From Hyphomicrobiales bacterium (GTDB lineage Bacteria > Pseudomonadota > Alphaproteobacteria > Rhizobiales > Rhizobiaceae): a stretch of 64,000 nucleotides of DNA. The notes under the pieces were generated by a model. It saw only the letters and a list, made by a program, of their open reading frames with translations, was not told where the DNA came from and ran no database searches. Shown here one piece after another: positions 40,959-56,621 of this stretch; position 1 is the stretch's first letter, and every line of letters starts with the position of its first letter. The stretch covers positions 182,520 through 246,519 of the forward strand of contig UCNG01000014.1 of NCBI GenBank assembly GCA_900473915.1, written 5' to 3'. Made by a program: the position numbers and the translations under genes.

Positions 40959-41031
40959 GAGCCATACTCCCCTTCCCTGTCACCAAGCTTGATGCGACAA
41001 TAAAAGTCAACCATCATCACCGGGAAAAGAG

Positions 41032-41049
41032 GACAATATTGTCAACAAT
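41032..41049. promoter_or_regulatory. GntR-type operator upstream of gntR-1
   Basis: ATTGTCAACAAT (41038-41049) has the TNGTNNACNA core typical for FadR/FCD regulators. It overlaps a second perfect palindrome, GACAATATTGTC (41032-41043). The site is 80 bases before the gntR-1 start. Confidence 0.65.
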
Positions 41050-41058
41050 GATTGAAGG

Positions 41059-41793
41059 TTATGCCTCCTGAGTAAACACCTTGCAACCGGGCGCGCTTTT
41101 GACCCGAGGATAGTCATAGCTGTTCACCTTGGAGGTTGCGTATCCGGCGCCAACCAGCGCTTCCGCCATTTTGACCGCAGCCGTTACGCCATCGATCACC
41201 GGCACGCCAGTCGCCTCCTTCAGACGCTCACACAAGGAGGACATTCCTGCGCAACCCAGCACGATAGCTTCTGCTCCGTCCTCGGCCTTCGCGCGTTCGA
41301 TTTCTCTCAGCAACAATTGTTCCGCTTTATACGAATCTTCCTCAAGGGCCAGCACCGGAAGGTCGATCGCACGCACCTTGCGGCAGTGCCGATCAGCACC
41401 GTAATCGCTCACAAGATCCTCGATGATAGCCACCGAGCGAGGAAGCGTTGTTATCACTGAAAAGCGGCGGCTGATCGTCATGGCCACCTGTATCGCGGCC
41501 TGACAAATGCCGATCACGGGCCCTTTCGCCACTTCGCGCGCGGCATGCAGGCCGGGATCGTCAAAGCAGGCGATGACATAGGCATCCACCCCCAGAACCT
41601 CACCCTTTCGGATTTCTGCCAGCATTCCCGGCACGGCCATCGCCTCGTCCGTGCCACCTTCGATACTGACAGGCGTGTCGCTCGGGTTTGCGGCGGAGAT
41701 ATGCGTATGATCCTGCTTGACCAGCAAGGCGCTTTCCAGCGCCTGCGCCGTCATGGAAGCGGTGGAATTGGGATTGATGAGATGAATATGCAT
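41059..41793 (-). CDS. Hydantoin racemase-like protein (Asp/Glu racemase superfamily)
   Basis: A 244-residue cytoplasmic protein. It starts IHLINPNSTASMT, the signature of hydantoin racemases, with active-site cysteines in YVIACFDDPGL (about 76) and IVLGCAGMSSL (about 180). Hydantoin racemase converts 5-substituted hydantoins between isomers, and related proteins act on allantoin. The neighbouring amidohydrolases could open a ring amide, which fits a heterocycle route, but the substrate is not shown by sequence. It lies between the flavin-reductase-like and gntR-1 genes, all minus strand. Confidence 0.87.
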   Translation of the reverse strand: MHIHLINPNSTASMTAQALESALLVKQDHTHISAANPSDTPVSIEGGTDEAMAVPGMLAEIRKGEVLGVDAYVIACFDDPGLHAAREVAKGPVIGICQAAIQVAMTISRRFSVITTLPRSVAIIEDLVSDYGADRHCRKVRAIDLPVLALEEDSYKAEQLLLREIERAKAEDGAEAIVLGCAGMSSLCERLKEATGVPVIDGVTAAVKMAEALVGAGYATSKVNSYDYPRVKSAPGCKVFTQEA

Positions 41794-41823
41794 AATGGTA
41801 TTCTCTGTTACCTGGCTCTAAAC

Positions 41824-42450
41824 CTACTGTTTCGGCTTCTTGAAATCGCCAATCGGCGGAGCTTTCAAAACGAACTGGCGGTCTGATGTCACATAATTGT
41901 CGGCATGAAGCCGGGCTATGGGCTGATAGGCTTCCGGATCCACGTAATGGCCCTCGGCATCAAGGCAATTGCGGCGCACGTGCATCTGCACCACCTCGCC
42001 CAGAACGAGGGTCCGGCGCGGGTATTCGATCAGACGTTCGACCCTGCACTCGAAAACGCATGGCGCTTCCTGAGGATAAGCGACATTGATCTTGCGGCAC
42101 GGAACGGGGCTCAATCCTGCAACTTCCAGCTCGTCCACCTCGCTGTCGAAACCGAGTCCGCAAATTAGCATCTGTTGAGACAAAGCCATATCGACCATGC
42201 TGATGGCGAACTCACCGGACCGACGTATGTTGACCATCGTGTCCTTCTGCTCTCCTGTCAGACGCGGCTGAATACCCAATACGACGATGGCCGGATCATG
42301 GGAAAACACATTGAAAAAGCTCATCGGCGCAGCATTGTTATGCCCCGCTTCCGATCGTGTCGTCACAAGCGCAATCGGACGCGGACCAATGAAATTCGTC
42401 AGCAGTCTATAACGGCTCTGCGGTTCAATCGCTTCGAAATCGAATTCCAT
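41824..42450 (-). CDS. Flavin reductase-like FMN-binding protein
   Basis: A 208-residue protein of the FMN split-barrel family. Key segments are YRLLTNFIGPRPIALVTTRSE, NNAAPMSFFNVFSHDPAIVVLG, and DTMVNIRRSGEFAISMVD. Such proteins supply reduced flavin to a monooxygenase or act directly on a substrate; no monooxygenase is encoded in the neighbourhood. The ATG at 42450 is preferred to a GTG at 42471 because the family begins there; the ribosome site is weak. It is first in a minus-strand unit, facing gntR-2 across two operator-like sites. Confidence 0.85.
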   Translation of the reverse strand: MEFDFEAIEPQSRYRLLTNFIGPRPIALVTTRSEAGHNNAAPMSFFNVFSHDPAIVVLGIQPRLTGEQKDTMVNIRRSGEFAISMVDMALSQQMLICGLGFDSEVDELEVAGLSPVPCRKINVAYPQEAPCVFECRVERLIEYPRRTLVLGEVVQMHVRRNCLDAEGHYVDPEAYQPIARLHADNYVTSDRQFVLKAPPIGDFKKPKQ

Positions 42451-42472: not shown

Positions 42473-42506
42473 ATTATCTACAATAATGTTTCATATTGTC
42501 GACAAT
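42473..42506. promoter_or_regulatory. Two GntR-type operators between flavin-reductase-like gene and gntR-2
   Basis: ATTGTCGACAAT (42495-42506; extended TATTGTCGACAATA is perfectly symmetric) and ATTATCTACAAT (42473-42484; one base off the pattern). The centres are 22 bases apart, about two helical turns, on the same DNA face. Both lie in the 130-base gap between divergent genes. Confidence 0.72.
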
Positions 42507-42583: not shown

Positions 42584-43261
42584 ATGAACGCACCAGCCGC
42601 AATGTCGGTCGAGCAGATAGTTGAAAGGGTTTGGCTTTCGATCGCTGAACGGCGATTGCGTCCTGGCGTACAACTCAAAGAAGAACAGCTGGCCTCGATC
42701 TTTCACGTCAGTCGCGCCCGTGTCCGTCAGGCATTGACGGTCCTTGAACGCGATGGCCTTGTGACCATCATTCCCAATCGCGGCGCTTTCGTCAGCAAGC
42801 CGTCCGTGGAAGAGGCGCGAGATGTTTTCTTTGTTCGACAGGCCGTGGAACGGTGCATCGTTGAGAGGCTCTGCGCCTCGACGCTGAAAGACAGCGTGAA
42901 AAGGCTTCGCGATCACGTCAATCAGGAGCGGATTGCAAACGCCGAAGACAGCACCACCGACATCATCAAATTGTCCGGTGGCTTCCATCTTTTGCTGGCA
43001 GAACTGACCGGTTCCGATTTCCTGTTCACAACGATGCGAGACCTTATTGCCCGCAGCTCGCTTATCACCGCCGTTTATCGAAACACAGCCCGGTTCAATT
43101 GCGGCCCCGACGAACATGCCGAGATCGTGGAAGCGATTTCGGCAAAAGAGGTGCAGAAGGCCGTGCATCTTATGGCGCATCATCTGGAACATGTGGAATC
43201 CGAACTGGATCTGAGCGAGATACGCGATCTTTCCCACGATCTGCGAGCAGCATTGGCGTGA
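42584..43261 (+). CDS. GntR-family regulator with FCD domain (GntR-2)
   Basis: A 225-residue paralogue of GntR-1. Winged helix LRPGVQLKEEQLASIFHVSRARVRQALTVLERDGLV, then FCD domain with FHLLLAELTGSDFLF, HAEIVEAI and MAHHLEHVE. The ATG at 42584 has AGGAGA eight bases upstream; the longer frame is not supported. It is divergent from the flavin-reductase-like operon and convergent with the importer operon, separated from the latter by a strong terminator. The operators in front of it suggest autoregulation. Confidence 0.93.
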   Translation: MNAPAAMSVEQIVERVWLSIAERRLRPGVQLKEEQLASIFHVSRARVRQALTVLERDGLVTIIPNRGAFVSKPSVEEARDVFFVRQAVERCIVERLCASTLKDSVKRLRDHVNQERIANAEDSTTDIIKLSGGFHLLLAELTGSDFLFTTMRDLIARSSLITAVYRNTARFNCGPDEHAEIVEAISAKEVQKAVHLMAHHLEHVESELDLSEIRDLSHDLRAALA

Positions 43262-43262
43262 A

Positions 43263-43291
43263 GCGAAGAAGCCGGCTACCGGCTTCTTCGC
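43263..43291. terminator. Strong bidirectional terminator
   Basis: GCGAAGAAGCCGG and CCGGCTTCTTCGC form a perfect 13-bp stem with a CTA loop, immediately behind the gntR-2 stop and just before the end of the converging ATPase gene; a pyrimidine-rich tract (CTTTCTTCTTC) follows on the plus strand. Confidence 0.8.
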
Positions 43292-43303
43292 TGGCTTTCT
43301 TCT

Positions 43304-44284
43304 TCAAGCCTCCGTTTCGACCAGATGACAAGCGACGCGAGTGCCGTTCGGCAGCATCTGCATTGCTGGCACTTCCTTTGAGCAGCGCTCCATGGCGAAT
43401 GGGCAGCGCGGATGGAAGGTGCAACCGGATGGCGGCTTGAGCGGGCTTGGCACTTCGCCGCTGGCCGGTTCGCGGTTGCGGTTCGGGGCCTCAATATTCG
43501 GAATGGTCTGCAACAGGAGCTGCGTATAGGGATGACGCGGCGCGGCAAACAGCTCTTCGGTGTCGCCCTCCTCCACGATGCGGCCCAGATACATCACCGC
43601 GATGCGATCCGACATGTGGCGGACGACGCTCATGTCGTGACTAATGAAGAGATAGGTCAAGCCCAGCTCATCCTGCAACCGACGCATCAGGTTCAAAACC
43701 TGCGCCTGCACCGACACGTCCAGCGCCGAAGTCGGCTCGTCGCAGACGAGGAATTCAGGCTCGCTCGCCAATGCGCGGGCAATCGAGATGCGCTGGCGCT
43801 GGCCGCCCGAAAATTCATGCGGGAATTTTTCGCCGTCCGACGGCGAAAGCCCGACCGTGCGCAAAAGTTCCTCCACACGCTCGGTCACTTCGGCGGCAGT
43901 GTTGCGCAGCTTCAGTTCACGCAGCGGCTCGGCGATGATGTTCTTCACCCGCCAGCGCGGATTGAGCGAGGCATAGGGATCCTGAAAAATCATCTGCGCT
44001 GAAAGCGGCTTGCCGCTCTTGCCCGGCGCAAAGCGCATTTCGCCGCTCGTCGCACGATGCAAACCGGTGACGAGACGGGCAACAGTGGATTTTCCGCAGC
44101 CGCTTTCACCGACGATGCTCAGACAGCCGCCCGCAGGCACCGTGAAGCTGATATCGTTGACGGCTTGCAGATATTGCCGGGGCTTGCGTTCAACCACCCG
44201 GTTGAGCCATGGCGCCGACACGTCGAAGGTTTTGACCAGTCGATTAACGGTAAGGGCCGGAGCTTTTTGCAACGGTTTCGTCAT
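43304..44284 (-). CDS. Dipeptide/oligopeptide ABC transporter ATPase (DppF/OppF type)
   Basis: A 326-residue ATPase. Walker [11 protein letters not shown]-loop [17 protein letters not shown], signature [16 protein letters not shown], Walker [13 protein letters not shown], then [14 protein letters not shown]. The C-terminal oligopeptide extension [15 protein letters not shown] has the cysteines that bind an iron-sulfur cluster in this subfamily. The start overlaps the end of the partner ATPase gene by four bases. Last gene of the importer operon. Confidence 0.94.
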
Positions 44285-45264
44285 GCGGTGCCTCCCGCGT
44301 TCAGCCAGCAGGCGCTGGCGGTCTGGTCGGAGAATACGAGTTCCGGGCGCTCGCGCAGGCAGCGCGGCCCCGCCATCTTGCAGCGTGGATTGAAGGCGCA
44401 GCCCTGGGGGATCGCATCGAGACGCGGCATGGAACCGTCAATCTGGTTAAGCTTCTCGACCCGTGCGCCAAGCGACGGGATCGAGGCCATCAACCCTTGC
44501 GTATAGGGATGACGCGGCTGGTGCAGCACCTGCGCCACCGGCCCGATCTCGATCAGCCGCCCGGCATACATGACCGCGATGCGGTCAGCCGCCTCGGCGA
44601 TCACACCCATGTCGTGAGTGACGAGCATGACGGCGGTGTGCTTTTCCTTGCACAATTTGCGCAGGAGCGAGATGATCTGCGCCTGGATCGACACATCGAG
44701 CGCCGTGGTCGGTTCGTCGGCGATGACAAGCTTCGGCGAAGCGGCGAGCGCAAGCGCAATCACTACACGCTGGCGCATGCCGCCGGAGAACTGGTGCGGA
44801 TATTGGTTGACCCGCTCTTCCGGTGAGGGAATGCCAACATCGCGCAGCAATTGCACGGCGCGGGCGCGGGCTTCCGCCTTGCCGAGCCCCAGATGCCGCC
44901 GGATTGTTTCAACAAGCTGCGCACCCACCGTAAACAGCGGATTGAGCGAGGTGAGCGGGTCCTGGAAAATGGCTCCGATTTCGCGCCCGCGGATTTTTTC
45001 CATGGCGCGATCATCAAGCGTGTCGATGCGCGTTTTGCCAAGCCAGACCTCGCCGCCGGCAATATGGCCGGGCGCTTCGAGCAAGCCCTGAATGGCGAGG
45101 CCTGTCATGGACTTGCCTGCACCGGATTCACCGACCACGCCGAGGATTTCACCCGGGCGGATCGACAGGCTGACATCCGACAGCGCGGTTACCGTGCCAC
45201 GACGGCCCGGGAAATCCACGCGCAGATTGCGTACCTCAACGACTGGTTCTTGCATGTCACCCAT
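44281..45264 (-). CDS. Dipeptide/oligopeptide ABC transporter ATPase (DppD/OppD type)
   Basis: A 327-residue ATPase, partner of the DppF-type protein. Walker A GESGAGKSM, Q-loop IGAIFQDPLTSLNPLFTVG, signature FSGGMRQRVVIALAL, Walker B LVIADEPTTALD, switch LVTHDMGVIAEAA, and the cysteine-rich end GCAFNPRCKMAGPRC. Of ATGs at 45270, 45264 and 45255 the second has the best spacing to AGAGGA. The gene overlaps the upstream amidohydrolase-like gene end by 8 bases (from 45264), showing translational coupling in the operon. Confidence 0.93.
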   Translation of the reverse strand: MGDMQEPVVEVRNLRVDFPGRRGTVTALSDVSLSIRPGEILGVVGESGAGKSMTGLAIQGLLEAPGHIAGGEVWLGKTRIDTLDDRAMEKIRGREIGAIFQDPLTSLNPLFTVGAQLVETIRRHLGLGKAEARARAVQLLRDVGIPSPEERVNQYPHQFSGGMRQRVVIALALAASPKLVIADEPTTALDVSIQAQIISLLRKLCKEKHTAVMLVTHDMGVIAEAADRIAVMYAGRLIEIGPVAQVLHQPRHPYTQGLMASIPSLGARVEKLNQIDGSMPRLDAIPQGCAFNPRCKMAGPRCLRERPELVFSDQTASACWLNAGGTA

Positions 45265-46753
45265 TTTCATTTTCCTCTATAGGATAGCTGGGTGGGAAGA
45301 TTTCGCTGACCGGAGGGTTGTTCCAGCTCCGTTCAGGATATTTGGCGATCAGCCCGTCATATTGCGCCTGCGCCTGATCACGGGCCTTCTGCATGTCGAA
45401 ACCAGCCAATTGGCGGTTCACCATGGAGACGCGACCGTCAACAAAAACGGCTTCCGTGATCTTGCCCGAACCGCCTGTGACGATGGTGGTAATCGGATCG
45501 ATGGATGGCGCCATGAAGACGTCATCGAGACGGAAAACCGCAATATCGGCCCGGGCACCCGGTGACAGATGGCCGAGATCAGAACGCCCCAGCGCCTTTG
45601 CACCGCCGATTGTCGCGGCATCGAACAGGTCTTTGGCGCGCAGACGATCCGGTGCGCCATCAGCCACACGACCGGTGATGAGACCGGCCAGCAGGTTCAT
45701 CAGCATGTCAGGCGGCGTCGTATCCGTGCCCATGGCAATGTTGATCCCGCGCTCGCGGCAGTCGGAGAACGACTTGAGGATCGAACCGCCACGGCCTGAA
45801 ACCAGCGGGCAATGGACGATGGAAACGCCATGTTCCGCATAAAGCCCCAGATCTTCGTCGGTGGCGTTGGTGGCATGCGGCGCAATGAGACGGTCGCTCA
45901 GCAGGCCGTTTTTGGCAAGCCAGACCGGCGCGGTCGAACCATGCAGTACCCGCACCGTATCGACTTCCATCGCGCCCTGCGCCATGTGCAGGCGGAACTT
46001 GCAGCCCAGATCGCGCGCGGCGGCATCGGTACGCTGGATCAATCCGAGCGTCGAAGTCTCGACGCGATCCGGCGCCAGCATGCCGCGCACCAGATCGCCA
46101 TGACGGCCATTCTGGCGTTCGATATAGGCAATGGCGTCCTTCAACCCTTGAAAACCGCGTTCCTCGTCGAAGACCGGCACCATCTTGCCCGGTGCTTCCA
46201 GCACCATGCCGCCTGAACGGTAGGCGGGGCTGAGATAGACGCGCAGGCCGAGATCGCCTGCGGCTTCCGCAGCAGCATCGAACTCGGCAACTGTTTCGCC
46301 CCATTCACGGTAAAACAGCGAGGCAATCGGCGCGGCAGTGGTGATGCCGTTCAGCAAAAGTTGGCCGAAAGCAAACCGCTTCTGGAAGGCAAGCTCTTCC
46401 TCCCTATACATTTCATAGGGGCCAGCCTCGACGTAAGAGCGCGGCCAGACGCGGCCCTTGGCCCAACCGGGATGATGGTCGATGCCAAGGATAGTGGTGT
46501 CGAGATCGGACAATGCGTCGAGGTCGATCAGGCCGGGGCTGATCAGCGCATTGCCGAAATCGATGCGGCGAGCCACCTCGCCGGAAAAACCATGTCCGAC
46601 GAACAGGATTTCGCCATTCTCGAAGACGACCTCGCCATTGCGGAGAAGCCGGTGGCTACCGTCCTTGTGCCCGACCACCCAGCTTGCGGTGATCAGGGTG
46701 CGGCCTTCCGGCCTCGATCCAAGCGGAAGGGTTTCCAATGCCTTGTTCATCAT
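45257..46753 (-). CDS. Amidohydrolase-superfamily protein with non-canonical metal motif (copy 1)
   Basis: A 498-residue protein of the TRZ/ATZ branch, shown by the composite start (GEVVFENGEILFVG), the strand ISPGLID and the end of the barrel GTDTTPPDMLMN and GARADIAVFRLDDVF. Where these enzymes have the HxH metal pair (usually DAHTH), this protein reads DLDALSDLD (residues 77-85). The next ligand segment is RLHMAQG (H256, Q259 in place of the usual Glu), then APHAT (H293) and MGTDT (D344). The same replacement occurs in the paralogue at 51809, so it is not an error. ATG at 46753 overlaps the preceding stop (ATGATGA), with GGAG upstream. Confidence 0.82.
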   Translation of the reverse strand: MMNKALETLPLGSRPEGRTLITASWVVGHKDGSHRLLRNGEVVFENGEILFVGHGFSGEVARRIDFGNALISPGLIDLDALSDLDTTILGIDHHPGWAKGRVWPRSYVEAGPYEMYREEELAFQKRFAFGQLLLNGITTAAPIASLFYREWGETVAEFDAAAEAAGDLGLRVYLSPAYRSGGMVLEAPGKMVPVFDEERGFQGLKDAIAYIERQNGRHGDLVRGMLAPDRVETSTLGLIQRTDAAARDLGCKFRLHMAQGAMEVDTVRVLHGSTAPVWLAKNGLLSDRLIAPHATNATDEDLGLYAEHGVSIVHCPLVSGRGGSILKSFSDCRERGINIAMGTDTTPPDMLMNLLAGLITGRVADGAPDRLRAKDLFDAATIGGAKALGRSDLGHLSPGARADIAVFRLDDVFMAPSIDPITTIVTGGSGKITEAVFVDGRVSMVNRQLAGFDMQKARDQAQAQYDGLIAKYPERSWNNPPVSEIFPPSYPIEENENG

Positions 46754-47943
46754 GGCATCTCCACCACGGCAACGCCCTGACGGGCCGTAACGCGACCGCC
46801 CTTGACCACCAGCGGACGCGGGGCGACATCCACCACCGCGTGGGCCAGCGTCTCGCCGGTCAGAAGGGTGAAATCGGCATTGCAGCCGACGTTCAGCCCG
46901 TAATTTTCAAGTCGCATGACATCCGCGCCGCCCTGCGAAACAATGTACAGCAGATGCTCCAGATCGTGATCGGAGCGCACGCCGTTCTTCATGCCGATAA
47001 TCTTGGCGCGGTCGAGCATATCCGGCTGGCCCCATGGACCCCATGTATCGCGAATACCGTCGCAGCCGCCGCCGATGCGCACGCCTGCTTCCTTGAGCCG
47101 CTTGATCGACGGCACCGTGGCCGAAGGCGCGCCGGTGGTGAGGATGGCAACATCGAGAAGAGCAAGCTGTTCGATCAATTGACCGACGCGCAGATAGTCA
47201 TTCATGCCAAGCGCAAAGGCGTGGCTGATCGCCACCTTGCCTTCCATGCCATTGGCGCGGATGCGCTCGAAAATAAGCTCCATCGTGAAAGCGCCGAGAT
47301 CACCCGTTTCATGCAGGTGAATATCGATCGGGACGCCATGCTTGGTGGCAAGGGCGAACAGGATATCGAGCTGGCCCTTCGGATCACGGTCGATGCCGCA
47401 CGGATCGATGCCGCCCAGCACTTCGCAGCCCTGCCCGAGCGCCTCATCCAGCAGCTCCTTCGTGCCCGGCATGACCATCAGGCCCGATTGTGGGAAGGCC
47501 ACGATTTCAATATCGATGATGCCCTTCAGCTTTTCCCGCGTTTCCCACAAGCCTTCAACCAGCGACAGGCCGTGGGTCGGATCGATATCCACGTGACTGC
47601 GGATATGCGTGCTGCCATGCGCGACCAGACCGATGGCGTGGCGCATCGACTGGCGATGCGGATCAATGCCGATTTCCAGCCGATGCTCGCGTTCGAAGTC
47701 GATGCGCTCGCGCAGGATCGCAGCACGATTGTTGACATGCCAGGGCATGCCCCAGGTGGTCTTGTCGAGATGGGTATGCGCATCGATCAGGCCGGGTGCG
47801 ACGATGGCGTTGCCGCCATCTTCCACAGCCATTCCCGGCTCTGCTTCAAACTGTCCGAAACCGGCAATCTTTCCGTCTCTGATGAGGATATCGCAGGTTT
47901 CACCTGCCATCGGGCGGACGTTGCGGAGCAAAAGATTGTTCAT
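46750..47943 (-). CDS. Cytosine deaminase-like amidohydrolase
   Basis: A 397-residue metal-dependent amidohydrolase of the CodA-like group. It has the intact first metal motif PGLIDAHTHLDK (H56, H58), then SHVDIDPTHGLSLVEG, DIHLHETGD (barrel-centre His and Glu), ISHAFALG and the Asp of GGGCDGIRDTWGPWGQPDML. Members deaminate or hydrolyse ring amidines such as cytosine, isocytosine or creatinine-like compounds. The ATG at 47943 follows the permease stop by five bases and has GAGGTAAG in front; the much longer open frame upstream is the permease gene read in another frame. Confidence 0.88.
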   Translation of the reverse strand: MNNLLLRNVRPMAGETCDILIRDGKIAGFGQFEAEPGMAVEDGGNAIVAPGLIDAHTHLDKTTWGMPWHVNNRAAILRERIDFEREHRLEIGIDPHRQSMRHAIGLVAHGSTHIRSHVDIDPTHGLSLVEGLWETREKLKGIIDIEIVAFPQSGLMVMPGTKELLDEALGQGCEVLGGIDPCGIDRDPKGQLDILFALATKHGVPIDIHLHETGDLGAFTMELIFERIRANGMEGKVAISHAFALGMNDYLRVGQLIEQLALLDVAILTTGAPSATVPSIKRLKEAGVRIGGGCDGIRDTWGPWGQPDMLDRAKIIGMKNGVRSDHDLEHLLYIVSQGGADVMRLENYGLNVGCNADFTLLTGETLAHAVVDVAPRPLVVKGGRVTARQGVAVVEMP

Positions 47944-47948
47944 AAGAC

Positions 47949-48920: not shown

Positions 48921-49889
48921 TCAGCGAGCAGTGCGCAAGCGGGGATCGATTACCGCATAGGCAATGTCCACCAGCGTGTTGAGCACGACGAAGATAAAGG
49001 AAATGATGCAGAGATAGGCCGCCATCACCGGAATATCGAGGAAGGTGACAGCCTGAATAAACAGCATGCCCATGCCCGGCCACTGGAACACGGTCTCGGT
49101 GATCAGTGCGAAGGCGATCAGCGAGCCGACATTCATGGCGGTCATCGTTACGACCGGCATCAGGCAGTTGCGCAGCGCATGGCGGAAATAGATGCGCCAG
49201 CGCGGAATGCCGCGAGCGCGGGCGAATTTGACATAATCGGACCGCAGCACTTCCAGCATTTCGGCACGCACGAGACGCATGACCAGCGTGACCTGATAAA
49301 GCGAAAGCGCAATGGAAGGCAGCAGGATCGCGGCGCGTCCCGAAGGCGTCAGCAGGCCCGTTGACCACCAGCCAAGCTGGACCACGTCACCGCGCCCGAA
49401 GGCCGGGAACCAGCCGAGCGAGACTGAAAAGACCAGGATCAGCAGAATGCCGACCACGAAACTCGGCAGCGAGACACCGACAATGGAGAGGAATTGCAAT
49501 CCCTCCGTATACCATTTGCCGCGCTTGATTGCTGTCAGCACGCCCAATGGCAGACCAACCAGCAGCGAAATCAGCGTGGCGACTAGCACCAGTTCCAGCG
49601 TCGCGGGAAAGCGTTCGCCGATCAGGCCCAGCACGTCCTGGCCGTTTCGGTAGGATATGCCGAAATTGCCTTGCGCCGCATTGACCACGAAACGGGTATA
49701 TTGCGTCATCAGGCCATCGTTGAGGCCAAGGCGCTCGCGCAGATTATCGCGGTCGGCCTGCGTCATCTGTTCGTTGGCCATCATTTCGACAGGGTCGCCC
49801 GCCAGCCGGAAAATCAGAAAGGCAAGCAAAGCGACGGCCAACATCACCATAACGGCGTTTGCCAGGCGCTTAATGATAAAAACCAGCAT
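48921..49889 (-). CDS. Dipeptide/oligopeptide ABC transporter permease (DppB/OppB type)
   Basis: A 322-residue inner-membrane permease starting FIIKRLANAVMVMLAVALLAF, with the periplasmic LGLNDGLMTQYTRFVVNAAQGNFG segment typical for DppB and the docking loop DYVKFARARGIPRWRIYFRHALRN. About six membrane segments. Separated from the binding-protein gene by a hairpin. Confidence 0.94.
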   Translation of the reverse strand: MLVFIIKRLANAVMVMLAVALLAFLIFRLAGDPVEMMANEQMTQADRDNLRERLGLNDGLMTQYTRFVVNAAQGNFGISYRNGQDVLGLIGERFPATLELVLVATLISLLVGLPLGVLTAIKRGKWYTEGLQFLSIVGVSLPSFVVGILLILVFSVSLGWFPAFGRGDVVQLGWWSTGLLTPSGRAAILLPSIALSLYQVTLVMRLVRAEMLEVLRSDYVKFARARGIPRWRIYFRHALRNCLMPVVTMTAMNVGSLIAFALITETVFQWPGMGMLFIQAVTFLDIPVMAAYLCIISFIFVVLNTLVDIAYAVIDPRLRTAR

Positions 49890-49955: not shown

Positions 49956-51524
49956 TTATTCGGCGAACTGCGTCAGCCAGTGACGCGGCTTGTTGTCCGG
50001 CAACTGCACGATCTGGTCGATCTTCTTCGACATGACCCACGCCATCGGCTGCTGGTGCAGAGGCAGCATCACGATTTCGTCTTTCACCACTTTCAGCGCT
50101 TGCGTCTCCAACGCCAGGCGCTTGGTGCGATCCATTTCGGTCGAAGCCTGCTCGGTCAGCTTGTCGATCTCGGGATAGCTCCAGCCACCCCAGTTGAACA
50201 CGCCTGCCTTCTCCGTTCTGGTTGCCATCATCTGCAACAGGATCGAATAGCTGTCGAGCATCGGCTCCGTTGCCCAGCCGATCAGATAGACGTCAGCCTT
50301 GCCTTCCGTACGCTTCGGGGTCTGCGCGGCCACTGGCGCGATATCAAGCTGCGGCTTGAAACCGCCGCGGCTCATCATGTTGGCGAGACCCTGGCAGAGT
50401 TCTTCCTCGTTCACATAGGCGTCGGTCGTGCAGACCAGCGTGAAGGGGAAGTCGGTAGCTCCGGCTTCGGCCAGAAGCTTCTTTGACAGTTCCGGATCGT
50501 ATTTCAACGTCGTGTCGAGTTCAGGCGTGTAGCCCGGAATTTCCGGTGCAACCACCGCGCCTGCCGTGCGCGACTTGCCGCGCATGATGCGCTTCTGGAT
50601 CAGGTCACGGTCGAGAGCATGAGCAAAAGCCTGACGCACGCGCAGATCGTTGAACTTGTTTTCCGAACCGTTGGCAAGCTTCGGCTTGCGATTGAAACCG
50701 ATCATGACGGTGCGCAGATCGGTACGCTCCATCACATTCAGTTCCGGCTGAGCCTGGAGGCGCGGCAAATCCTGCGACGGCGCATTTTCCGTGAAATTAA
50801 TCTCGCCCGACAGAAGCGCTGCCACACGTGTCGCCGCCGAAACGATTGGTGTGAACTCGATGCGATCGATATTCGACTTCGACTTGTCCCACCAGTCCGC
50901 GTTTTTCACCAGCACCGTCTTGGAATCCGGCGTGCGGCTTTCCAGCTTGAACGGTCCAGTGCCGTTGGTGTGATAAGTGGCGTAACCTTCGATTTTGGCG
51001 CCGACGTCGGTCGGTTTTTCCGAATTGTTGGCCTTGAGCCATCCGGCATCGAAAATATGAATGTTGGTCAGATCGTTGAGCAGCAGCGGATAGGGGCCGC
51101 TCAGCTCGATATCGACAGTGTAATCGTCCACTTTCTGGGACGACTTATACGCGGGCAGATTGCCGCGCAGCGGCGAAACCGGATCGCTGACACGCTTCAG
51201 TGAAGCAAGCACGTCATCGGCCGTGAATTCCGCGCCATCGTGGAATTTTACGCCCTTGCGCAGGTGAAAACGCCAGACCGTCTCGGAAACATTTTCCCAG
51301 GATTCGGCCAGTGCCGGTTCGATCTTCAGGTTGGCGTCATACCGCACCAGACCTTCATAAACGTGATTAAGGAAAGCCAGCGTGTAGCTGTCGCCGTAAG
51401 AATAGGGATCGAGCGAGTAAATATCATGTGCCGCCCCCCATTTCAGCGTTGCAGCCTGTACCGGTGAGGTCAAGCCCGTCAGGCCAGCCAACAGCGTGGC
51501 CGCAAGGCCCAGTTTTTTAAACAT
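49956..51524 (-). CDS. Oligopeptide-type ABC transporter binding protein, family 5 (copy 1)
   Basis: A 522-residue periplasmic receptor. Signal peptide MFKKLGLAATLLAGLTGLTS...VQA, then family-5 landmarks: DIYSLDPYSYGDSYTLAFLNHVYEGL, WRFHLRKGVKFHDGAEFTADDV and GTGPFKLESRTPDSKTV. The ATG at 51524 has GCGGAG at good distance; the longer frame is promoter DNA. It is first in a seven-gene importer/amidohydrolase operon. The protein at 53381 is a close paralogue, so the importer may use two receptors of different range. Despite the name, family members often carry non-peptide ligands. Confidence 0.93.
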   Translation of the reverse strand: MFKKLGLAATLLAGLTGLTSPVQAATLKWGAAHDIYSLDPYSYGDSYTLAFLNHVYEGLVRYDANLKIEPALAESWENVSETVWRFHLRKGVKFHDGAEFTADDVLASLKRVSDPVSPLRGNLPAYKSSQKVDDYTVDIELSGPYPLLLNDLTNIHIFDAGWLKANNSEKPTDVGAKIEGYATYHTNGTGPFKLESRTPDSKTVLVKNADWWDKSKSNIDRIEFTPIVSAATRVAALLSGEINFTENAPSQDLPRLQAQPELNVMERTDLRTVMIGFNRKPKLANGSENKFNDLRVRQAFAHALDRDLIQKRIMRGKSRTAGAVVAPEIPGYTPELDTTLKYDPELSKKLLAEAGATDFPFTLVCTTDAYVNEEELCQGLANMMSRGGFKPQLDIAPVAAQTPKRTEGKADVYLIGWATEPMLDSYSILLQMMATRTEKAGVFNWGGWSYPEIDKLTEQASTEMDRTKRLALETQALKVVKDEIVMLPLHQQPMAWVMSKKIDQIVQLPDNKPRHWLTQFAE

Positions 51525-51728: not shown

Positions 51729-51752
51729 GTTGTCAACTCGATTGTTGACAAT
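51729..51752. promoter_or_regulatory. GntR-type operator pair upstream of importer operon
   Basis: ATTGTTGACAAT (51741-51752) is a perfect match to the pattern ATTGTNNACAAT and is preceded directly by a half-conserved GTTGTCAACTCG (51729-51740). It lies about 220 bases before the binding-protein start, in a 284-base gap that otherwise holds no gene. Confidence 0.68.
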
Positions 51753-51808: not shown

Positions 51809-53299
51809 TTATTCCGACTTCCATACCGGATAGCTTGGCGAAAATATCTCTTCGACCAGCGGGTGTTGCCAGCTCCTGTCGGGATATTTGGCGATCAGTC
51901 CTTCATATTGCCGCTGCGCCCGTTCCCGCGCAGCCGCCATGTCGATTCCGGCAACCTTGCCGTCCAGCATGGACAAGCGCCCATCGACAAACACCGCCTT
52001 TGTGACCTTGCCGGAACCGCCAACCACCAGCGTCGTGATGGGATCGACACTCGGCGTCATGTAAAGATCATTGAGGCGGAAGACGGCAATATCCGCCTTT
52101 GTGCCTGCTGAAAGCCTTCCAATGTCCTGGCGTCCTAGCGCTTTAGCCCCGCCCAGCGTGGCCGCATCGAACAGGTCTTTCGAGAAAACCGCATCTGACG
52201 CTTTTTCGCCGATACGGCAGGCGATCAATCCCACGAGCATATTCATCAACATATCGGGCGGCGCCGTGTCGGTGGCCATACCGATATTGATGCCGAGTTT
52301 GCGACAGGAAGCAAAGGATTGCAGGATGCTGCCCATCCTCGCTGAAACCAGCGGTGAATGCGCAATGGAAACACCGTGCTGCGCATAAAGCTGCAAGTCC
52401 TGCGCCGAAGCATAGGTTCCGTGCGGCGCATAGAGCCTTTCGCTCATCAGCCCGTTATCCGCCAGCCATTGCGGCCCGGAAACACCATGCAGCTTGTGCA
52501 TGGTATCCAGTTCCAGCTTGCCCTGCGCCATATGAATCCGAACCCGGCAGTCGAGATCGCGTGCTGCCGCCATGGTGCGTTGCAACAAGGGCAATGTGCA
52601 GGTTTCGACACGGTCGGGCGCGAGCAGCCCGTTGACCAGCCCGCCATGACGACCGTGATTGCGCCCGATAAAATCGATGGCGTCAGCGAGACCCTGAAGT
52701 CCGCGCTCTTCATCGAACATCGGCTCTATGCGCCCCGGTTCCTCCAATATCATGCCGCCGGAGCGATAGGCAGGGCTAAGAAAAACACGCAAGCCAAGAT
52801 CGCCTGCCGAGTCTGCCGCCGCCTCGAACTCCGCCACCGTTTCCGCCCATTCTCGATAATAGAGCGATGCGATGGGAGCGGCTGACGTAATGCCGTTCAA
52901 CAAAAGAAGGCCGAAGCCGAAACGCTTCTGGAATGCCAGTTCCTCTTCCGAATACATTTCATACGGCCCGCGCTCCACATAGGAACGCGGCCAGATGCGC
53001 CCCTTCGCCCAGCCCGGCTGGTTGTCATGAACCAGCAGATATGTGTCGAGATCCGACAATGCATCAAGGTCGATCAAACCGGGGCTGACCAGTGCCGCGC
53101 CAAAATCGATGCGCCGCGCCACCTCGCCTTCGAAATGCGGCCCGGCATAAAGCACCTGATTGCCTTCGATGACGATCTCGCCGTTGGGAATGAGCCAATG
53201 CCCCTCGTCGCGCCAGGCAAGCACCCATTCCGCCGTCAGGAGGGTCCGCCCCTCTGGCCGCTCGCCCAAAACAAGTTCATGCGCCAGTTCAGGCTTCAT
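51809..53299 (-). CDS. Amidohydrolase-superfamily protein with non-canonical metal motif (copy 2)
   Basis: A 496-residue paralogue of the protein encoded at 45257, alike through the whole length. It also has DLDALSDLD in place of HxH, followed by RIHMAQG, APHGT and MATDTAPPDML. Conserved blocks such as GWAKGRIWPRSYVERGPYEM and the C-terminal YDRSW-like end (AKYPDRSWQHPLVEEIFSPSYP) mark a separate subfamily. It lies 81 bases behind the second binding-protein gene in the same direction. A different or absent metal, or an altered reaction, is possible. Confidence 0.82.
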   Translation of the reverse strand: MKPELAHELVLGERPEGRTLLTAEWVLAWRDEGHWLIPNGEIVIEGNQVLYAGPHFEGEVARRIDFGAALVSPGLIDLDALSDLDTYLLVHDNQPGWAKGRIWPRSYVERGPYEMYSEEELAFQKRFGFGLLLLNGITSAAPIASLYYREWAETVAEFEAAADSAGDLGLRVFLSPAYRSGGMILEEPGRIEPMFDEERGLQGLADAIDFIGRNHGRHGGLVNGLLAPDRVETCTLPLLQRTMAAARDLDCRVRIHMAQGKLELDTMHKLHGVSGPQWLADNGLMSERLYAPHGTYASAQDLQLYAQHGVSIAHSPLVSARMGSILQSFASCRKLGINIGMATDTAPPDMLMNMLVGLIACRIGEKASDAVFSKDLFDAATLGGAKALGRQDIGRLSAGTKADIAVFRLNDLYMTPSVDPITTLVVGGSGKVTKAVFVDGRLSMLDGKVAGIDMAAARERAQRQYEGLIAKYPDRSWQHPLVEEIFSPSYPVWKSE

Positions 53300-53328
53300 C
53301 GCATATCTCCGCGTTGCATATCAAAAGA

Positions 53329-53350
53329 GCGTTTCACCGGAATGAAACGC
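53329..53350 (-). promoter_or_regulatory. Intercistronic hairpin after second binding-protein gene
   Basis: GCGTTTC and GAAACGC pair across eight bases; on the minus strand a TCTTTT tract follows, so this may be a partial terminator that limits expression of the amidohydrolase-like gene behind it. Confidence 0.5.
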
Positions 53351-53380
53351 CCCATTTGTTAACCTACTGAAAATATGAGA

Positions 53381-54961
53381 TTATTCCGCCATCATCGTGT
53401 GCCAGTGGCGCGGCTTGTTATCGGCGCGGAAGTCCACGCTTTGGACCTTATCAAGCATGCCCCATGCAATAGGCTGCTGGTGGAGCGGAATCAGGATCGC
53501 GTTGTCCTTGGCGATCTTCAATGCCTGTTCTTCCAGCGCAAGACGCTTGGTGGTGTCGGCTTCCTGCGCAGCCTTCTTCACCAGCTCATCGAGTTCTGGA
53601 TAGGACCACCCGCCATAGTTGGAAACCCCGGTCGAGCCGCTGCGCGTGGAGAGAACCTGCGAAAGTAGCGAATAGGCATCGAGCGTCGGTTCGTTGGCCC
53701 AGCTCAGGTTGAACATATCGGCCTTGCCATTGGTCCGCTTCGGCTGCTGCACTGCACGCGGGCCCATATCGATGGTCGGCGCGAAACCGGCACGCTTCAG
53801 CATGTTCGCAATGCCCGAGCAGATATCTTCCTCGTTGATGCTCTCGTCATTCATGCACAGATAGTTGAAGGCCAGCCCCTTCTGTCCGGCTTCTTCAAGC
53901 AGCTTCTGGGCCTGCTTGGGATCGGCTGGCTGATAGGTGTCGAGCGATTTGGCATAACCAGCGATTTCCGGTGCTATGAGCGAACCGGAAGGCCGGGCCA
54001 GACCGCGCATGATCTTCTTGTTGATGAGATCGCGGTCGAGGCTTGCTTCCACAGCCTGACGAACGCGAACGTCCAGGAACGGGTTCGGGCGCCCATCCTC
54101 AAGTTTTTCCTTACCGTTGAAACCAATGAAGACCGTGCGCAACTCGGTACGCTTGCTCACCTTGATACCCGGTGAGGATTCCAGCCTTGGAAGATCCTGA
54201 ATAGGAGCGGAATCGACCAAATCTATTTCGTTGGAAAGCAATGCGGCAACGCGGGTTGCAGCAGAGGAGATTGGAACATACTCGATACGGTCGAGATTAT
54301 GTTTCTTCTCATCCCACCACTGGTCGTTGACCAGCAGAACCGTCTTTGAATCCGGGACACGGCTGTCGAGCTTGAACGGGCCGGTGCCGTTGGTGTTGTG
54401 GGTGGCATAGTTTTCGGTTTTGGAGGCAATATCGGTCGGCTTTTCGGCATTGTTGTCCTTGAGCCATTTCGCATTGAACATGAAGATATTGGTCATATCG
54501 TTCAGGAACAATGCGGTTGGCGCCGAAACCTCGATATCGACTGTGAAGTCATCGACTTTCTTGACACCGACATAGAGCGGAATGTTGCCGCGCAGGGGCG
54601 AGGTCGGGTCTGACACGCGGTTCATCGAGGCGACCACATCGTCAGCGGTGAAGTCCGCTCCGTTATGGAACTTCACGCCTTTGCGCAAGGTGAAGCGCCA
54701 GTACTTGTTGTCAATGAGCTTCCATTCGGTGGCTAGCGCCGGCTCGATCTCGAAATTGGGGCCGTAGCGGATCAATCCCTCGTAAATATGGTTCAGAAAA
54801 GCGAGATTGGACGTCGAAGGAACCGAATCCGGATCAAGGGAGTAGATGTCCGCGCGGCTGCCCCAGCGCAATGTCGCAGCACCTGCCGATGAGACCGCGA
54901 GTGGAGCGGCAATAGCCGCTGCGGTCAATGCTGATATGAGAAATCTGTTAAGACGCGTCAT
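53381..54961 (-). CDS. Oligopeptide-type ABC transporter binding protein, family 5 (copy 2)
   Basis: A 526-residue periplasmic receptor with signal peptide at the N-terminus (hydrophobic core ALTAAAIAAPLAVSSAGA). Family-5 segments: DIYSLDPDSVPSTSNLAFLNHIYEGL, WRFTLRKGVKFHNGADFTADDV, GTGPFKLDSRVPDSKTV. It is clearly a paralogue of the receptor at 49956. There is no second set of permeases, so both receptors probably feed the same DppBCDF-type transporter. The start ATG at 54961 faces an amidohydrolase gene across a 178-base gap with two tandem operators. Confidence 0.93.
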   Translation of the reverse strand: MTRLNRFLISALTAAAIAAPLAVSSAGAATLRWGSRADIYSLDPDSVPSTSNLAFLNHIYEGLIRYGPNFEIEPALATEWKLIDNKYWRFTLRKGVKFHNGADFTADDVVASMNRVSDPTSPLRGNIPLYVGVKKVDDFTVDIEVSAPTALFLNDMTNIFMFNAKWLKDNNAEKPTDIASKTENYATHNTNGTGPFKLDSRVPDSKTVLLVNDQWWDEKKHNLDRIEYVPISSAATRVAALLSNEIDLVDSAPIQDLPRLESSPGIKVSKRTELRTVFIGFNGKEKLEDGRPNPFLDVRVRQAVEASLDRDLINKKIMRGLARPSGSLIAPEIAGYAKSLDTYQPADPKQAQKLLEEAGQKGLAFNYLCMNDESINEEDICSGIANMLKRAGFAPTIDMGPRAVQQPKRTNGKADMFNLSWANEPTLDAYSLLSQVLSTRSGSTGVSNYGGWSYPELDELVKKAAQEADTTKRLALEEQALKIAKDNAILIPLHQQPIAWGMLDKVQSVDFRADNKPRHWHTMMAE

Positions 54962-55041
54962 GCTTTTTTCCCCTCGCGGATGATGAGCCCTACCGGCCTT
55001 TTTGGGTCCGATTTTTTGTTAGTATCGTAATCGCTTATGTT

Positions 55042-55065
55042 ATTGTCAACGATATTGTTGGCAAT
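55042..55065. promoter_or_regulatory. Tandem GntR-type operators in divergent promoter region
   Basis: ATTGTCAACGAT (55042-55053) and ATTGTTGGCAAT (55054-55065) abut; each is one base off the symmetric pattern. The same abutting arrangement is seen at 51729-51752. A further inverted repeat, GTTCAATGTTGAAC (55086-55099), lies nearby. Confidence 0.68.
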
Positions 55066-55139
55066 TATGATTCAAAACATCGACAGTTCAATGTTGAACA
55101 TGCGCGAACCGCGCAATTCAAAACAATAAGGGAATGGAA

Positions 55140-56621
55140 ATGGGTGGACTTCTTTTACTGCACGGTACAATCGTCACCGTCGATGAAGGCCGACGGATTG
55201 TCGAGGATGGCGGTCTGGCGATCGAAAACGACAGGATCGTTGATATCGGTACCGCAGAAGAACTCCACGCCCGACATGCCGGAAAAAAAGTAATCGACTG
55301 CACGGGAAAACTGATCATCCCCGGGCTGATTGATGCCCACGGGCATGCGGGTCATGCCTTGATCCGCAGCATTGGTGCCGACACCAATTCGCTGTGGATG
55401 CGGATCGTCACGCCAACCTACTATCACTATGTCACGCGAGACTACTGGTACGCAGATGGTCTCGTTTCCGGCCTCGAAAGACTATGCGCGGGCGTAACGA
55501 CGTCTGCCAGCATCATCACCTCCATGCCGCGCAGCGACGATCCGGCCTTCGCAATCAATCATGCCCGTGCCTATTCGGAACTCGGCTTGCGGGAGATCAT
55601 CTGCGTGGGCCCTGCCGGCCTGCCATGGCCGCAATCGGTTACACGCTGGGAAAGCGGCAAGCCGGAGCGGCACAGCGTTTCCTTCGAGGAGATGATCGAG
55701 GGTGCAGAGGCCGTTATCGAAAGCCTGAACGGAACTGCCAACGGACGCATCAAGGTGTTTCTGACTCCATTCACCATCGTCCCCTCGGTTGAGCCGTCGA
55801 ATGCCTCGACGCCGGACTTCGCCGTAAACCTGACCAAGGACGACCGGATGCAGGCGCGGCGCATCCGCGAAACAGCCCGCAAATGGGGCGTGCGCATTCA
55901 TTCCGATGCCTTCGCCGGACAGATCCGCATGGCATGGCAGGACAAGGAGAATGCCCTGCTCGGGCCTGACGTTCACCTCCAGCATTGCTGGGGCATTTCG
56001 CATGAGGAAATAGATATTCTCGCAGAAACAGGCACGCATGTCACTCATGCCCCTCCCGGTCGGTCTACGCCGATCATGCAGATGATGGCGCGCGGCGTAC
56101 CGGTCGCCATTACTTCGGACGGCGCCGCTCCCAGCCGCCATTTCGACATGCTGCAGATCGCACGCATTGCCCAGTCGACGCAGCATATCCTGCACAATCA
56201 CGACCGCTATCTCCTGCCACCGGGCAAGGTCTTCGAAATGATCACTATCGACGCGGCGCGCGCGATTGGCATGGATCACGAGATTGGCTCTCTCGAAAAG
56301 GGCAAGAAAGCCGATATCGCCATCATCGATATGCGCAAGCCCCATCTGACGCCGAACTGGATGCCCGTCCACCGGCTGATCCATCAGGTGCTGGGCAGCG
56401 ATGTGGATACCGTTATCGTGGATGGGAAAATTCTCATGGAGGACGGCAAGGTGCTGACCGCCAATATGCATGAAGCGCTGGCTTTCGGCGAAGCAGAGGC
56501 GCGTGCACTGGTGATGAGAGCGGGCTTGCAAAACCATATGCATGATCCCGCTTGGGGCCAACTGCAACGAACCTTTCGCGAGCCTGTAAACCTGCCCTCA
56601 TTGCCTGAAGTCGGGCAATAG
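55140..56621 (+). CDS. Amidohydrolase, TRZ/ATZ/SsnA type (deaminase/chlorohydrolase family)
   Basis: A 493-residue metal-dependent amidohydrolase with canonical ligands: PGLIDAHGHAGH (H67, H69), VRIHSDAFAG, HLQHCWGIS and AITSDGAAPS. The N-terminal beta-sandwich starts LLLHGTIVTVDEGRR and the C-terminal one has GSLEKGKKADIAIIDMRK. Members hydrolyse amidine or halide groups on heterocycles, such as guanine, S-adenosylhomocysteine or triazines. The ATG at 55140 is preferred to one at 55134 because AAGGGA is then well spaced. Divergent from the second receptor gene, it is the only enzyme gene of this island on the plus strand. Confidence 0.88.
   Translation: MGGLLLLHGTIVTVDEGRRIVEDGGLAIENDRIVDIGTAEELHARHAGKKVIDCTGKLIIPGLIDAHGHAGHALIRSIGADTNSLWMRIVTPTYYHYVTRDYWYADGLVSGLERLCAGVTTSASIITSMPRSDDPAFAINHARAYSELGLREIICVGPAGLPWPQSVTRWESGKPERHSVSFEEMIEGAEAVIESLNGTANGRIKVFLTPFTIVPSVEPSNASTPDFAVNLTKDDRMQARRIRETARKWGVRIHSDAFAGQIRMAWQDKENALLGPDVHLQHCWGISHEEIDILAETGTHVTHAPPGRSTPIMQMMARGVPVAITSDGAAPSRHFDMLQIARIAQSTQHILHNHDRYLLPPGKVFEMITIDAARAIGMDHEIGSLEKGKKADIAIIDMRKPHLTPNWMPVHRLIHQVLGSDVDTVIVDGKILMEDGKVLTANMHEALAFGEAEARALVMRAGLQNHMHDPAWGQLQRTFREPVNLPSLPEVGQ

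What the first reader, a model, noticed from the sequence alone, without database searches (positions are those of the whole stretch)
40959..55140. A shared palindrome ATTGTNNACAAT defines a probable GntR regulon over 18 kb
The 12-base palindrome occurs as ATTGTCAACAAT (41038), ATTGTCGACAAT (42495) and ATTGTTGACAAT (51741). One-mismatch copies are at 42473, 55042 and 55054, and a weaker copy at 51729. All lie in promoter regions of one catabolic island. The core TNGTNNACNA is the form known for FadR/FCD-type GntR proteins, and two paralogous FCD GntR genes sit inside the island. Two sites abut with a 12-base period (51729/51741 and 55042/55054), and two are 22 bases apart, which suggests cooperative binding. 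The regulon would unite the flavin-reductase-like, hydantoin-racemase-like, ThDP, importer and amidohydrolase genes.
Basis: partly seen in the sequence, partly recalled or inferred. Interest (0 to 1): 0.75.

Follow-up and report, generated by a model that had tools for sequence, protein, structure and literature searches.

The report
Shared switch for a catabolic island
A short DNA palindrome repeated in front of the operons of one bacterial degradation-gene island is very probably the docking site of the island's own regulator proteins, and it has been kept in the same promoters across many related soil bacteria; it is a solid but conventional gene switch.

Summary
ATTGTNNACAAT with at most one mismatch occurs 7 times in the 64-kb window (1.37 expected; 0 of 100 shuffles reach 7), six of them at the stated places. 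In 46 dereplicated upstream regions of related FCD-GntR genes, a search blind to the motif finds ATTGT-N2-ACAAT in 36; no palindrome in 200 shuffled sets exceeds 3. It precedes 215 of 246 operon-first genes and 0 of 453 internal ones, two misfiled gntR-1 genes aside. Nine Ochrobactrum-lineage genomes each have exactly three perfect copies in the island; four have none elsewhere. One-mismatch copies are not specific (77-163 per genome). The 12- and 22-bp spacings are conserved. Genomes with only one of the two GntR types keep the motif, so both probably read it. The ThDP gene is not supported as a target; the 'weak copy' at 51729 holds a conserved -35-like box. The identical palindrome is published for Pseudomonas PrpR: a new member of a known kind. 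Binding, repression, effector and substrate are untested.

The parts
41038..41049 (.). operator ATTGTCAACAAT, 79 bp before gntR-1 and 9 bp past the racemase stop
   Evidence: a perfect copy 74-79 bp before gntR-1 in L007-L015, 9 of 9
42473..42484 (.). operator ATTATCTACAAT (1 mismatch), 22 bp from the next; holds a -10-like GATAAT for the flavin-reductase gene
   Evidence: second site at +22 with >=7 of 10 matches in 19 of 25 dereplicated promoters
42495..42506 (.). operator ATTGTCGACAAT between divergent flavin reductase and gntR-2; holds a -35-like TCGACA for the former
51729..51740 (.). weak half-operator GTTGTCAACTCG; on the - strand it holds TTGACA, putative -35 of the SBP1 operon
   Evidence: GTTGAC kept 3 bp past the operator in 20 of 25 dereplicated promoters
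51741..51752 (.). operator ATTGTTGACAAT upstream of the SBP1-importer operon
55042..55053 (.). operator ATTGTCAACGAT (1 mismatch), holds a -35-like box for SBP2 (- strand) and one for AH3 (+ strand)
   Evidence: 12-bp pair in 13 loci counting the window
55054..55065 (.). operator ATTGTTGGCAAT (1 mismatch), abuts the former with a 12-bp period
40281..40958 (-). gntR-1, FCD-type GntR regulator (225 aa)
   Evidence: Pfam GntR + FCD; in a clade of 9 Ochrobactrum-lineage rows, support 100/97
42584..43261 (+). gntR-2, FCD-type GntR regulator (225 aa), 71% identical to GntR-1 over 218 aa
   Evidence: in a clade of 12 rows with the Sinorhizobium regulators, support 100/99; model pLDDT 89.9
41059..41793 (-). 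Asp/Glu/hydantoin racemase
   Evidence: best solved relatives named 'putative hydantoin racemase' (3qvj) and 'allantoin racemase' (5lfd)
41824..42447 (-). flavin-reductase-like protein (start re-set to the conserved MEFDF; the listed ORF starts at 42471)
43262..43292 (+). 14-pair terminator-like hairpin between gntR-2 and convergent oppF
43304..44284 (-). ABC importer ATPase (OppF-like)
   Evidence: ORF; its match in L002 is annotated 'ABC transporter ATP-binding protein'
44281..45270 (-). ABC importer ATPase (OppD-like)
   Evidence: ORF; its match in L001 is annotated 'ABC transporter ATP-binding protein'
45257..46753 (-). amidohydrolase AH1 (PRK06151-type chlorohydrolase family)
46750..47979 (-). 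amidohydrolase CdaL (PRK05985 type; best solved relative 6nbo, N-isopropylammelide isopropylaminohydrolase)
47949..48899 (-). ABC importer permease (OppC-like)
   Evidence: ORF; its match in L001 is annotated 'ABC transporter permease'
48921..49889 (-). ABC importer permease (OppB-like)
49956..51524 (-). solute-binding protein SBP1 (start re-set), first gene of the importer operon
51809..53299 (-). amidohydrolase AH2 (69% to AH1), downstream of SBP2, no operator of its own
53326..53353 (-). 12-pair terminator-like hairpin between SBP2 and AH2
53381..54961 (-). solute-binding protein SBP2 (59% to SBP1)
55134..56621 (+). amidohydrolase AH3, divergent from SBP2

Best explanation
The palindrome is the operator of the island's FCD-type (VanR-group) GntR regulators. 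A dimer binds each ATTGT-N2-ACAAT, one subunit per arm. Copies lie over or beside the promoter boxes of the flavin-reductase/racemase, SBP1-importer-amidohydrolase, SBP2-AH2 and AH3 operons and upstream of both gntR genes, so bound regulator hinders RNA polymerase. A small molecule handled by the pathway enters the FCD pocket and releases the regulator. GntR-1 and GntR-2 read the same site. Shown: the sites, their conservation and their places. Inferred: binding, repression, effector, equal recognition by both paralogues, cooperativity of the paired sites.
For: Window enrichment 7 against 1.37 expected. Blind palindrome search: 36 of 46 upstream regions; no palindrome in 200 shuffled sets exceeds 3. 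Copies with at most 1 mismatch end 63-125 bp before the GntR start. <=1 mismatch before 215 of 246 operon-first genes, 0 of 453 internal genes once two misfiled gntR-1 genes are set aside, 4 of 1130 random coding stretches. Sites follow promoters when gene order changes, e.g. L039-L041, L067-L070. 27 of 42 perfect copies in nine Ochrobactrum-lineage genomes are in the island, three in each. Second copies peak at 12 and 22 bp. Genomes with only the GntR-1 type in the island (G008-G012) and S. medicae with only the GntR-2 type keep the same motif. Close precedent: P. aeruginosa PrpR, same 12-mer, binds its own upstream region and represses (PMC9765439, passages).
Against: No binding or expression data. 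In Aminobacter/Mesorhizobium loci the GntR/FlavR copy is often weak: five GntR-2 regions have two mismatches, and a GntR-2 relative in L038 has four. Three other FCD paralogues of 36-53% identity have perfect copies upstream (L105, L110, G012:C53), so the motif is not exclusive to this regulator; nine more of 35-42% do not (L106-L109, L111, L113-L116). S. medicae keeps a copy at the racemase end with no gntR-1 beside it. The promoter boxes are uncertain: the consensus scan finds 14 where 7.0 are expected, the operator arms resemble TTGACA, an alternative SBP1 promoter (TTGTCG-18-TATAAT) ends just before the operator, and a promoter with its -35 inside the operator is the best one in only 5 of 25 flavin-reductase, 4 of 25 SBP1/OppB (box next to the operator) and 0 of 6 GntR-1 regions, against 11 of 23 AH3 and 13 of 24 SBP2.
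Confidence: 0.9

Rival explanations
1. The copies are chance: short A+T-rich palindromes in A+T-rich promoters.
For: One-mismatch copies are frequent genome-wide (125, 77 and 163 in three genomes); about 2 perfect copies per 5 Mb are expected from base composition.
Against: Dinucleotide-preserving shuffles, reversed-pattern control (8 against 42 perfect copies in nine genomes), and fixed place across many species.
Confidence: 0.01
2. The sites are real but are read by another FCD regulator elsewhere in the genome, and GntR-1/GntR-2 have other targets.
For: Three FCD paralogues of 36-53% identity have the same palindrome upstream.
Against: In G001-G003 and G008-G011 the only homologues of GntR-2 at E<=1e-25 are the island's own regulators; a copy with <=1 mismatch lies before 58 of 64 GntR-2 and all 11 GntR-1 genes examined; in S. 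chiapasense a perfect copy lies before the 63% GntR that stands about 7 kb from the operon.
Confidence: 0.05
3. The regulator acts as an activator, or as both: operators upstream of a -35 could recruit polymerase.
For: In the SBP1/OppB class the core operator lies 3 bp upstream of a conserved GTTGAC (20 of 25); for the gntR genes the operator is mostly about 80 bp upstream of the start codon.
Against: Putative boxes of SBP2 and AH3 lie inside operator copies in about half of the dereplicated promoters (13 of 24, 11 of 23), and in the window also those of the flavin reductase; Atu1419 and PrpR, both FCD members with similar operators, repress (passages).
Confidence: 0.15
4. Only one paralogue is active; GntR-1 is a decaying relic.
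For: GntR-1 changes faster than GntR-2 in the same genomes (identity to the window 84/84/81% against 96/94/88% in L007/L008/L009); in L012 (B. cytisi) the GntR-1 frame is cut short.
Against: Residues S43, R44, R48 and His135, His178, His200 are kept in the GntR-1 rows of the 36-row alignment; its own operator is kept in 9 of 9 relatives L007-L015; L012 shows several island genes in pieces, which may be assembly error.
Confidence: 0.25

Closest known systems
Pseudomonas aeruginosa PrpR (PA0797), FCD GntR repressor of the methylcitrate operon (PMC9765439)
   Same: Same 12-nt palindrome (ATTGTCGACAAT) 84 bp upstream of the regulator gene, FCD regulator, repressor, binds its own upstream region in EMSA (passages)
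   Different: Controls propionate catabolism; no prp gene was identified among the island genes; here several operons and two paralogues
FadR-subfamily GntR regulons with a 2-nt GT-AC gap (GntR, HpxS, HypR, MdcY, PrpR, UxuR; PMC4494728)
   Same: Palindromic operator, divergons, double sites, extra half-boxes 7-12 nt from the site centre (passages)
   Different: I did not see this orthologous group in the passages; the supplement listing all groups was not open to me
Atu1419 of Agrobacterium fabrum (PMC7797058)
   Same: VanR-group FCD with six C-terminal helices, several operators in one catabolic region, three-His metal site (passages)
   Different: Operator ATGTATACAT, sites 190 bp apart and looping by a tetramer; here abutting or 22-bp pairs, and Ser instead of Asn/Asp before the first His

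Membership tests
FCD (FadR-subfamily) GntR regulators | N-terminal GntR winged helix plus C-terminal FCD domain | tested here: met
   Both proteins pass the Pfam cut-offs for PF00392 and PF07729
FCD (FadR-subfamily) GntR regulators | Palindromic operator with GT...AC core, upstream of own gene and of catabolic operons | tested here: met
   As sequence only; GT-AC gap 2 nt, the less usual form
[quoted passage not shown]
   Model has helices 75-99, 102-120, 124-141, 145-165, 175-186, 190-206, plus a 5-residue helix 220-224 after a low-confidence stretch; definition from PMC7797058 (passages). Fold search could not run
Metal-binding FCD regulators | Three His plus Asn or Asp four residues before the first His | tested here: not met
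   His135, His178, His200 invariant, but the Asn/Asp position is Ser131 in 36 of 36; with two distant actinobacterial rows instead of some others Ser131 is still in at least 90%; metal binding itself is untested
PrpR orthologues | Genes of the methylcitrate cycle under its control | tested here: not met
   Island proteins scanned are racemase, flavin reductase, amidohydrolases, solute-binding proteins and the ThDP enzyme; prp genes elsewhere in the genome could not be checked
Transcriptional operator | Bound by the regulator in vitro or in vivo | not testable with these tools
   Needs EMSA, footprint or ChIP

The most novel reading that the evidence does not exclude
A regulator turnover caught midway: in one Ochrobactrum subgroup the native regulator (GntR-1) now shares one operator set with a second, Sinorhizobium-type regulator (GntR-2), which reads the same palindrome and is displacing it, while the operators themselves stay fixed in the promoters.
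Probability: 0.35. Interest if true: 0.5.

Novelty: new member of a known kind. Interest (0 to 1): 0.36.

Why it matters
It turns a catabolic island found in many Rhizobiales and some Rhodobacterales into a defined regulon with a testable operator and a short list of regulators, and so gives a handle on its unknown substrate (deaminase- and racemase-type chemistry, perhaps on a cyclic amide or nucleobase-like compound). The promoter-specific spacing (12 or 22 bp) and the two paralogues on one operator set are a tidy case for studying how regulators are duplicated and replaced.

Tried and rejected
Scan of the window's own genome: none held. One-mismatch genome scan as specificity test: rejected, too many hits. 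Extension of the regulon to an NCS1 nucleobase permease: the perfect copy about 50 bp upstream in G003 is absent within 1.5 kb of the gene in the 7 other genomes that have the permease (0 of 7), rejected. A perfect copy about 80 bp before a urate oxidase in G004 has centre GA, not seen among 78 dereplicated island sites; not followed further. ThDP as member: rejected. A remnant of gntR-1 beside the orphan S. medicae operator: none found. Substrate from the literature: the searches 'Sinorhizobium meliloti + hydantoin racemase + GntR + amidohydrolase' and 'hydantoin racemase, flavin reductase, amidohydrolase, Rhizobium, GntR family' (4 of 5) gave 0 papers. 'ATTGTNNACAAT' gave 0 papers; ATTGTCGACAAT 4, of which one looked relevant in the listing and was read in passages; ATTGTTGACAAT 1, a lac-promoter paper by its title.

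Rows dropped and limits of counts: gene hits below 45% identity, starting after residue 25, or with under 150 bp upstream; L071-L073 gave no island genes. The six OppB-first regions counted as misses have copies about 308-382 bp upstream, beyond the 300 bp examined. Divergent pairs share sites, so the 215 of 246 counts some sites twice, and loci and one search were not dereplicated. In the tree frames with stops or under 85% coverage were left out, which removed L012 GntR-1. Of the perfect copies outside the island I looked at 13 of 17 in the six genomes (the fourteenth stretch, L077, holds an island copy); of the 10 in the other three Ochrobactrum-lineage genomes that have any only the G012:C53 copy was compared with a gene position.
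Full report
Observation. The pattern ATTGTNNACAAT with up to one mismatch occurs seven times in the 64-kb window, against 1.37 expected, and none of 100 dinucleotide-preserving shuffles reaches seven. Perfect copies number 3 inside 40959-55140 and 0 outside 38283-56621; the base-composition expectation is 0.026 per 64 kb. The interval given is 14.2 kb, not 18 kb.

Where the copies lie. They are in promoter regions: before gntR-1 (41038), between the divergent flavin-reductase gene and gntR-2 (42473, 42495), before the SBP1 operon (51741), and between the divergent SBP2 and AH3 genes (55042, 55054). Pfam and NCBIfam identify two FCD-type GntR proteins, a hydantoin-type racemase, a flavin-reductase-like protein, amidohydrolases and two family-5 solute-binding proteins; the two regulators are 71% identical to each other. 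The best solved relatives are hydantoin and allantoin racemases, an N-isopropylammelide isopropylaminohydrolase, an unassigned amidohydrolase (3hpa) followed by an MTA/SAH deaminase and triazine hydrolases, and a 2-nitrobenzoate nitroreductase. The pathway may therefore be ring-opening or deamination of a cyclic amide or nucleobase-like compound; this is inference, and the substrate is not identified.

Relatives. One scan of the genome collection with GntR-1 gave 67 loci, to which six plasmid loci were added. Gene order was mapped with the window's proteins: the racemase, flavin reductase, GntR, importer and amidohydrolase genes recur together in most loci, including Rhodobacterales with a GntR about 50% identical. 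Exceptions are L005 (no GntR within the locus), L048 and L061 (the GntR beside other genes) and L071-L073 (no hit). The ThDP gene and the third binding protein (35925-36758) had no hit at E<=1e-15 in any of the 73 loci; the LysR and Lrp proteins had only hits of 30-36% in L036, L048 and L061.

Blind motif test. From 76 regions of 200 bp upstream of GntR genes, 46 remained after dereplication. Counting every 5-base arm with every gap from 0 to 8, ATTGT with gap 2 is present in 36 of 46; in 200 shuffled sets no palindrome exceeds 3. The next ranks are CAATA gap 8 (16), which fits the inner arms of the 22-bp pair, and TATTG gap 4 (9), which is the core with one flanking base; AATAT gap 6 (9) and AGCCG gap 4 (7) were not examined. 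Ten of the 46 lack a perfect copy: four have one mismatch, five have two (L039, L041, L051, L053, L059) and one (L038 GntR-2, 60% identical) has four.

Promoter specificity. With 300 bp upstream, <=1 mismatch is found for flavin reductase 59 of 64, GntR-2 58 of 64, GntR-1 9 of 9, SBP1 14 of 14, SBP2 12 of 13, AH3 33 of 33, OppB as first gene 29 of 35, racemase as first gene 1 of 1, and for OppD, AH2 and OppF counted as first genes 0 of 4, 0 of 8 and 0 of 1: in all 215 of 246. For genes inside operons the count is 2 of 455, both gntR-1 genes filed as internal because the racemase gene ends close by; without them 0 of 453. Random 300-bp coding stretches give 4 of 1130. The six OppB misses have copies just outside the 300 bp.

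Genome-wide. Nine genomes (those of L007-L015; one is titled only 'Rhizobiales bacterium' but its GntR-1 falls in the same clade) hold 7, 3, 4, 8, 3, 4, 3, 3 and 7 perfect copies (G002, G001 and G003 in the order G001, G002, G003; then G007-G012); in each exactly three lie in the island within about 10-11 kb, 27 of 42 in all, and the reversed pattern occurs 8 times in all. In the Agrobacterium, S. medicae and Aminobacter genomes 3 of 5, 3 of 8 and 2 of 7 are in the island. One-mismatch copies number 125, 77 and 163 in three genomes and would have wrongly suggested no specificity. I looked at 13 of the 17 outside copies in the six genomes: one lies between a 53% GntR paralogue and its solute-binding protein (L078, L105), one before a 36% paralogue (L080, L110), one before a CdaL-like amidohydrolase (L086, 30% to CdaL), one before an NCS1 permease (L074, not conserved), one before a urate oxidase (L076), and the others inside ORFs or near genes without an evident link. 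The motif is thus shared by a small group of related regulators, but nine other FCD paralogues of 35-42% identity have no perfect copy upstream.

Spacing. Among 78 dereplicated perfect intergenic sites, a second copy with at least 8 of 10 matches is found at 22 bp 16 times and at 12 bp 12 times in 156 places each; at 13 bp 3 times, at 10, 23 and 36 bp once each, at the other offsets up to 45 bp never. Without dereplication, pairs of copies with at most one mismatch at 12 bp are in the SBP2/AH3 region of 13 loci and the OppB region of 2, at 22 bp in the flavin-reductase promoter of 16 loci, at 23 bp in 2 more, and at 36 bp near SBP2 in 2. In the flavin-reductase promoter 19 of 25 dereplicated regions have at least 7 of 10 matches at +22. 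The centre is CA/TG 33, AG/CT 22, CG 17, others 6.

Overlap with promoter boxes. In the window a consensus scan puts -35 TTGACA of SBP1 at 51736-51731, inside the 'weak copy', -35 of SBP2 at 55049-55044, -35 of AH3 at 55043-55048, and for the flavin reductase -35 at 42502-42497 and -10 at 42478-42473, each inside an operator copy. The scan finds 14 sites where shuffles give 7.0 (sd 2.4), and it also offers another SBP1 promoter ending at 51753, so single boxes are uncertain. In relatives GTTGAC is kept 3 bp past the operator in 20 of 25 SBP1/OppB promoters; the best promoter has its -35 inside a copy in 13 of 24 SBP2 and 11 of 23 AH3 regions, but in only 5 of 25 flavin-reductase regions, and with the box next to the operator in 4 of 25 SBP1/OppB regions; none was found in 6 GntR-1 regions. 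Operators over or beside promoter boxes fit repression; the case is good for SBP2 and AH3, weaker for the rest.

The two regulators. In the tree GntR-1 of the Ochrobactrum lineage is one clade of 9 rows (100/97), and GntR-2 falls with the Sinorhizobium regulators in a clade of 12 rows (100/99). Five genomes of the lineage (G008-G012) have only the GntR-1 type in the island, with no second homologue at E<=1e-25 except a 36% paralogue in G012, and keep both operator regions; S. medicae (G005) has only the GntR-2 type plus paralogues of 36-37%, and the same palindrome. Both types therefore probably read one operator. S43, R44 and R48, in and around the recognition helix, are invariant in 36 sequences that include both window proteins. 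GntR-1 changes faster than GntR-2 in the same genomes, and in B. cytisi its frame is cut short, with the caveat that other island genes in that assembly are in pieces too.

Structure. The GntR-2 model (mean pLDDT 89.9, pTM 0.83) shows a winged helix and six C-terminal helices, the VanR-group layout as defined in PMC7797058 (passages). The three metal-binding histidines are kept; the Asn/Asp partner is Ser in all 36 rows. Fold search could not be run.

Known kind. PMC9765439 (passages read) reports for P. aeruginosa PrpR, an FCD GntR repressor, the 12-nt palindrome ATTGTCGACAAT 84 bp upstream of its gene and EMSA binding to that region. PMC4494728 (passages) lists FadR-subfamily groups with the 2-nt gap and describes double sites and extra half-boxes. 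This island's regulon is a new, well-supported member of that kind; I found no description of it in the searches, which cover only open-licence papers.

Noticed in passing
L001:5947, L052:8460, L003:3950: S. medicae (and, with one mismatch, S. mexicanum) keep an operator at the racemase end although no gntR-1 lies beside it; no remnant was found.
   Followed up: partly
window 42584-43261 and 40281-40958: The Asn/Asp metal ligand of FCD regulators is an invariant Ser131 in 36 of 36 aligned regulators, with Cys173 also invariant.
   Followed up: partly
L105, L110, G012:C53:27127: FCD paralogues 53% and 36% identical also have a perfect palindrome upstream, L105 next to a paralogous solute-binding protein: perhaps a sister regulon.
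   Followed up: partly
L039:7002, L041:7005, L044:6985, L049:7073, L051:6984 and others: A one-mismatch copy ATTGTCGACATT recurs near the mapped start of AH3 in Aminobacter/Mesorhizobium loci; it may be coding or an internal operator.
   Followed up: no
L012:1-20676: Several island genes of the B. cytisi assembly appear in pieces or shifted frames, perhaps assembly error.
   Followed up: no
L048, L061: Two MAG loci carry a close GntR-2 with its operator next to a largely different set of genes, so the regulator may be re-used.
   Followed up: no
window 13372-19466: A second thiamine-diphosphate enzyme with an aminotransferase and a CoA-ligase-like gene lies in a row, perhaps another catabolic cluster.
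   Followed up: no
window 31305-31316: Lone one-mismatch copy ATTGTCGTCAAT outside the island, after an AraC-type gene (29817-31025); probably chance.
   Followed up: partly
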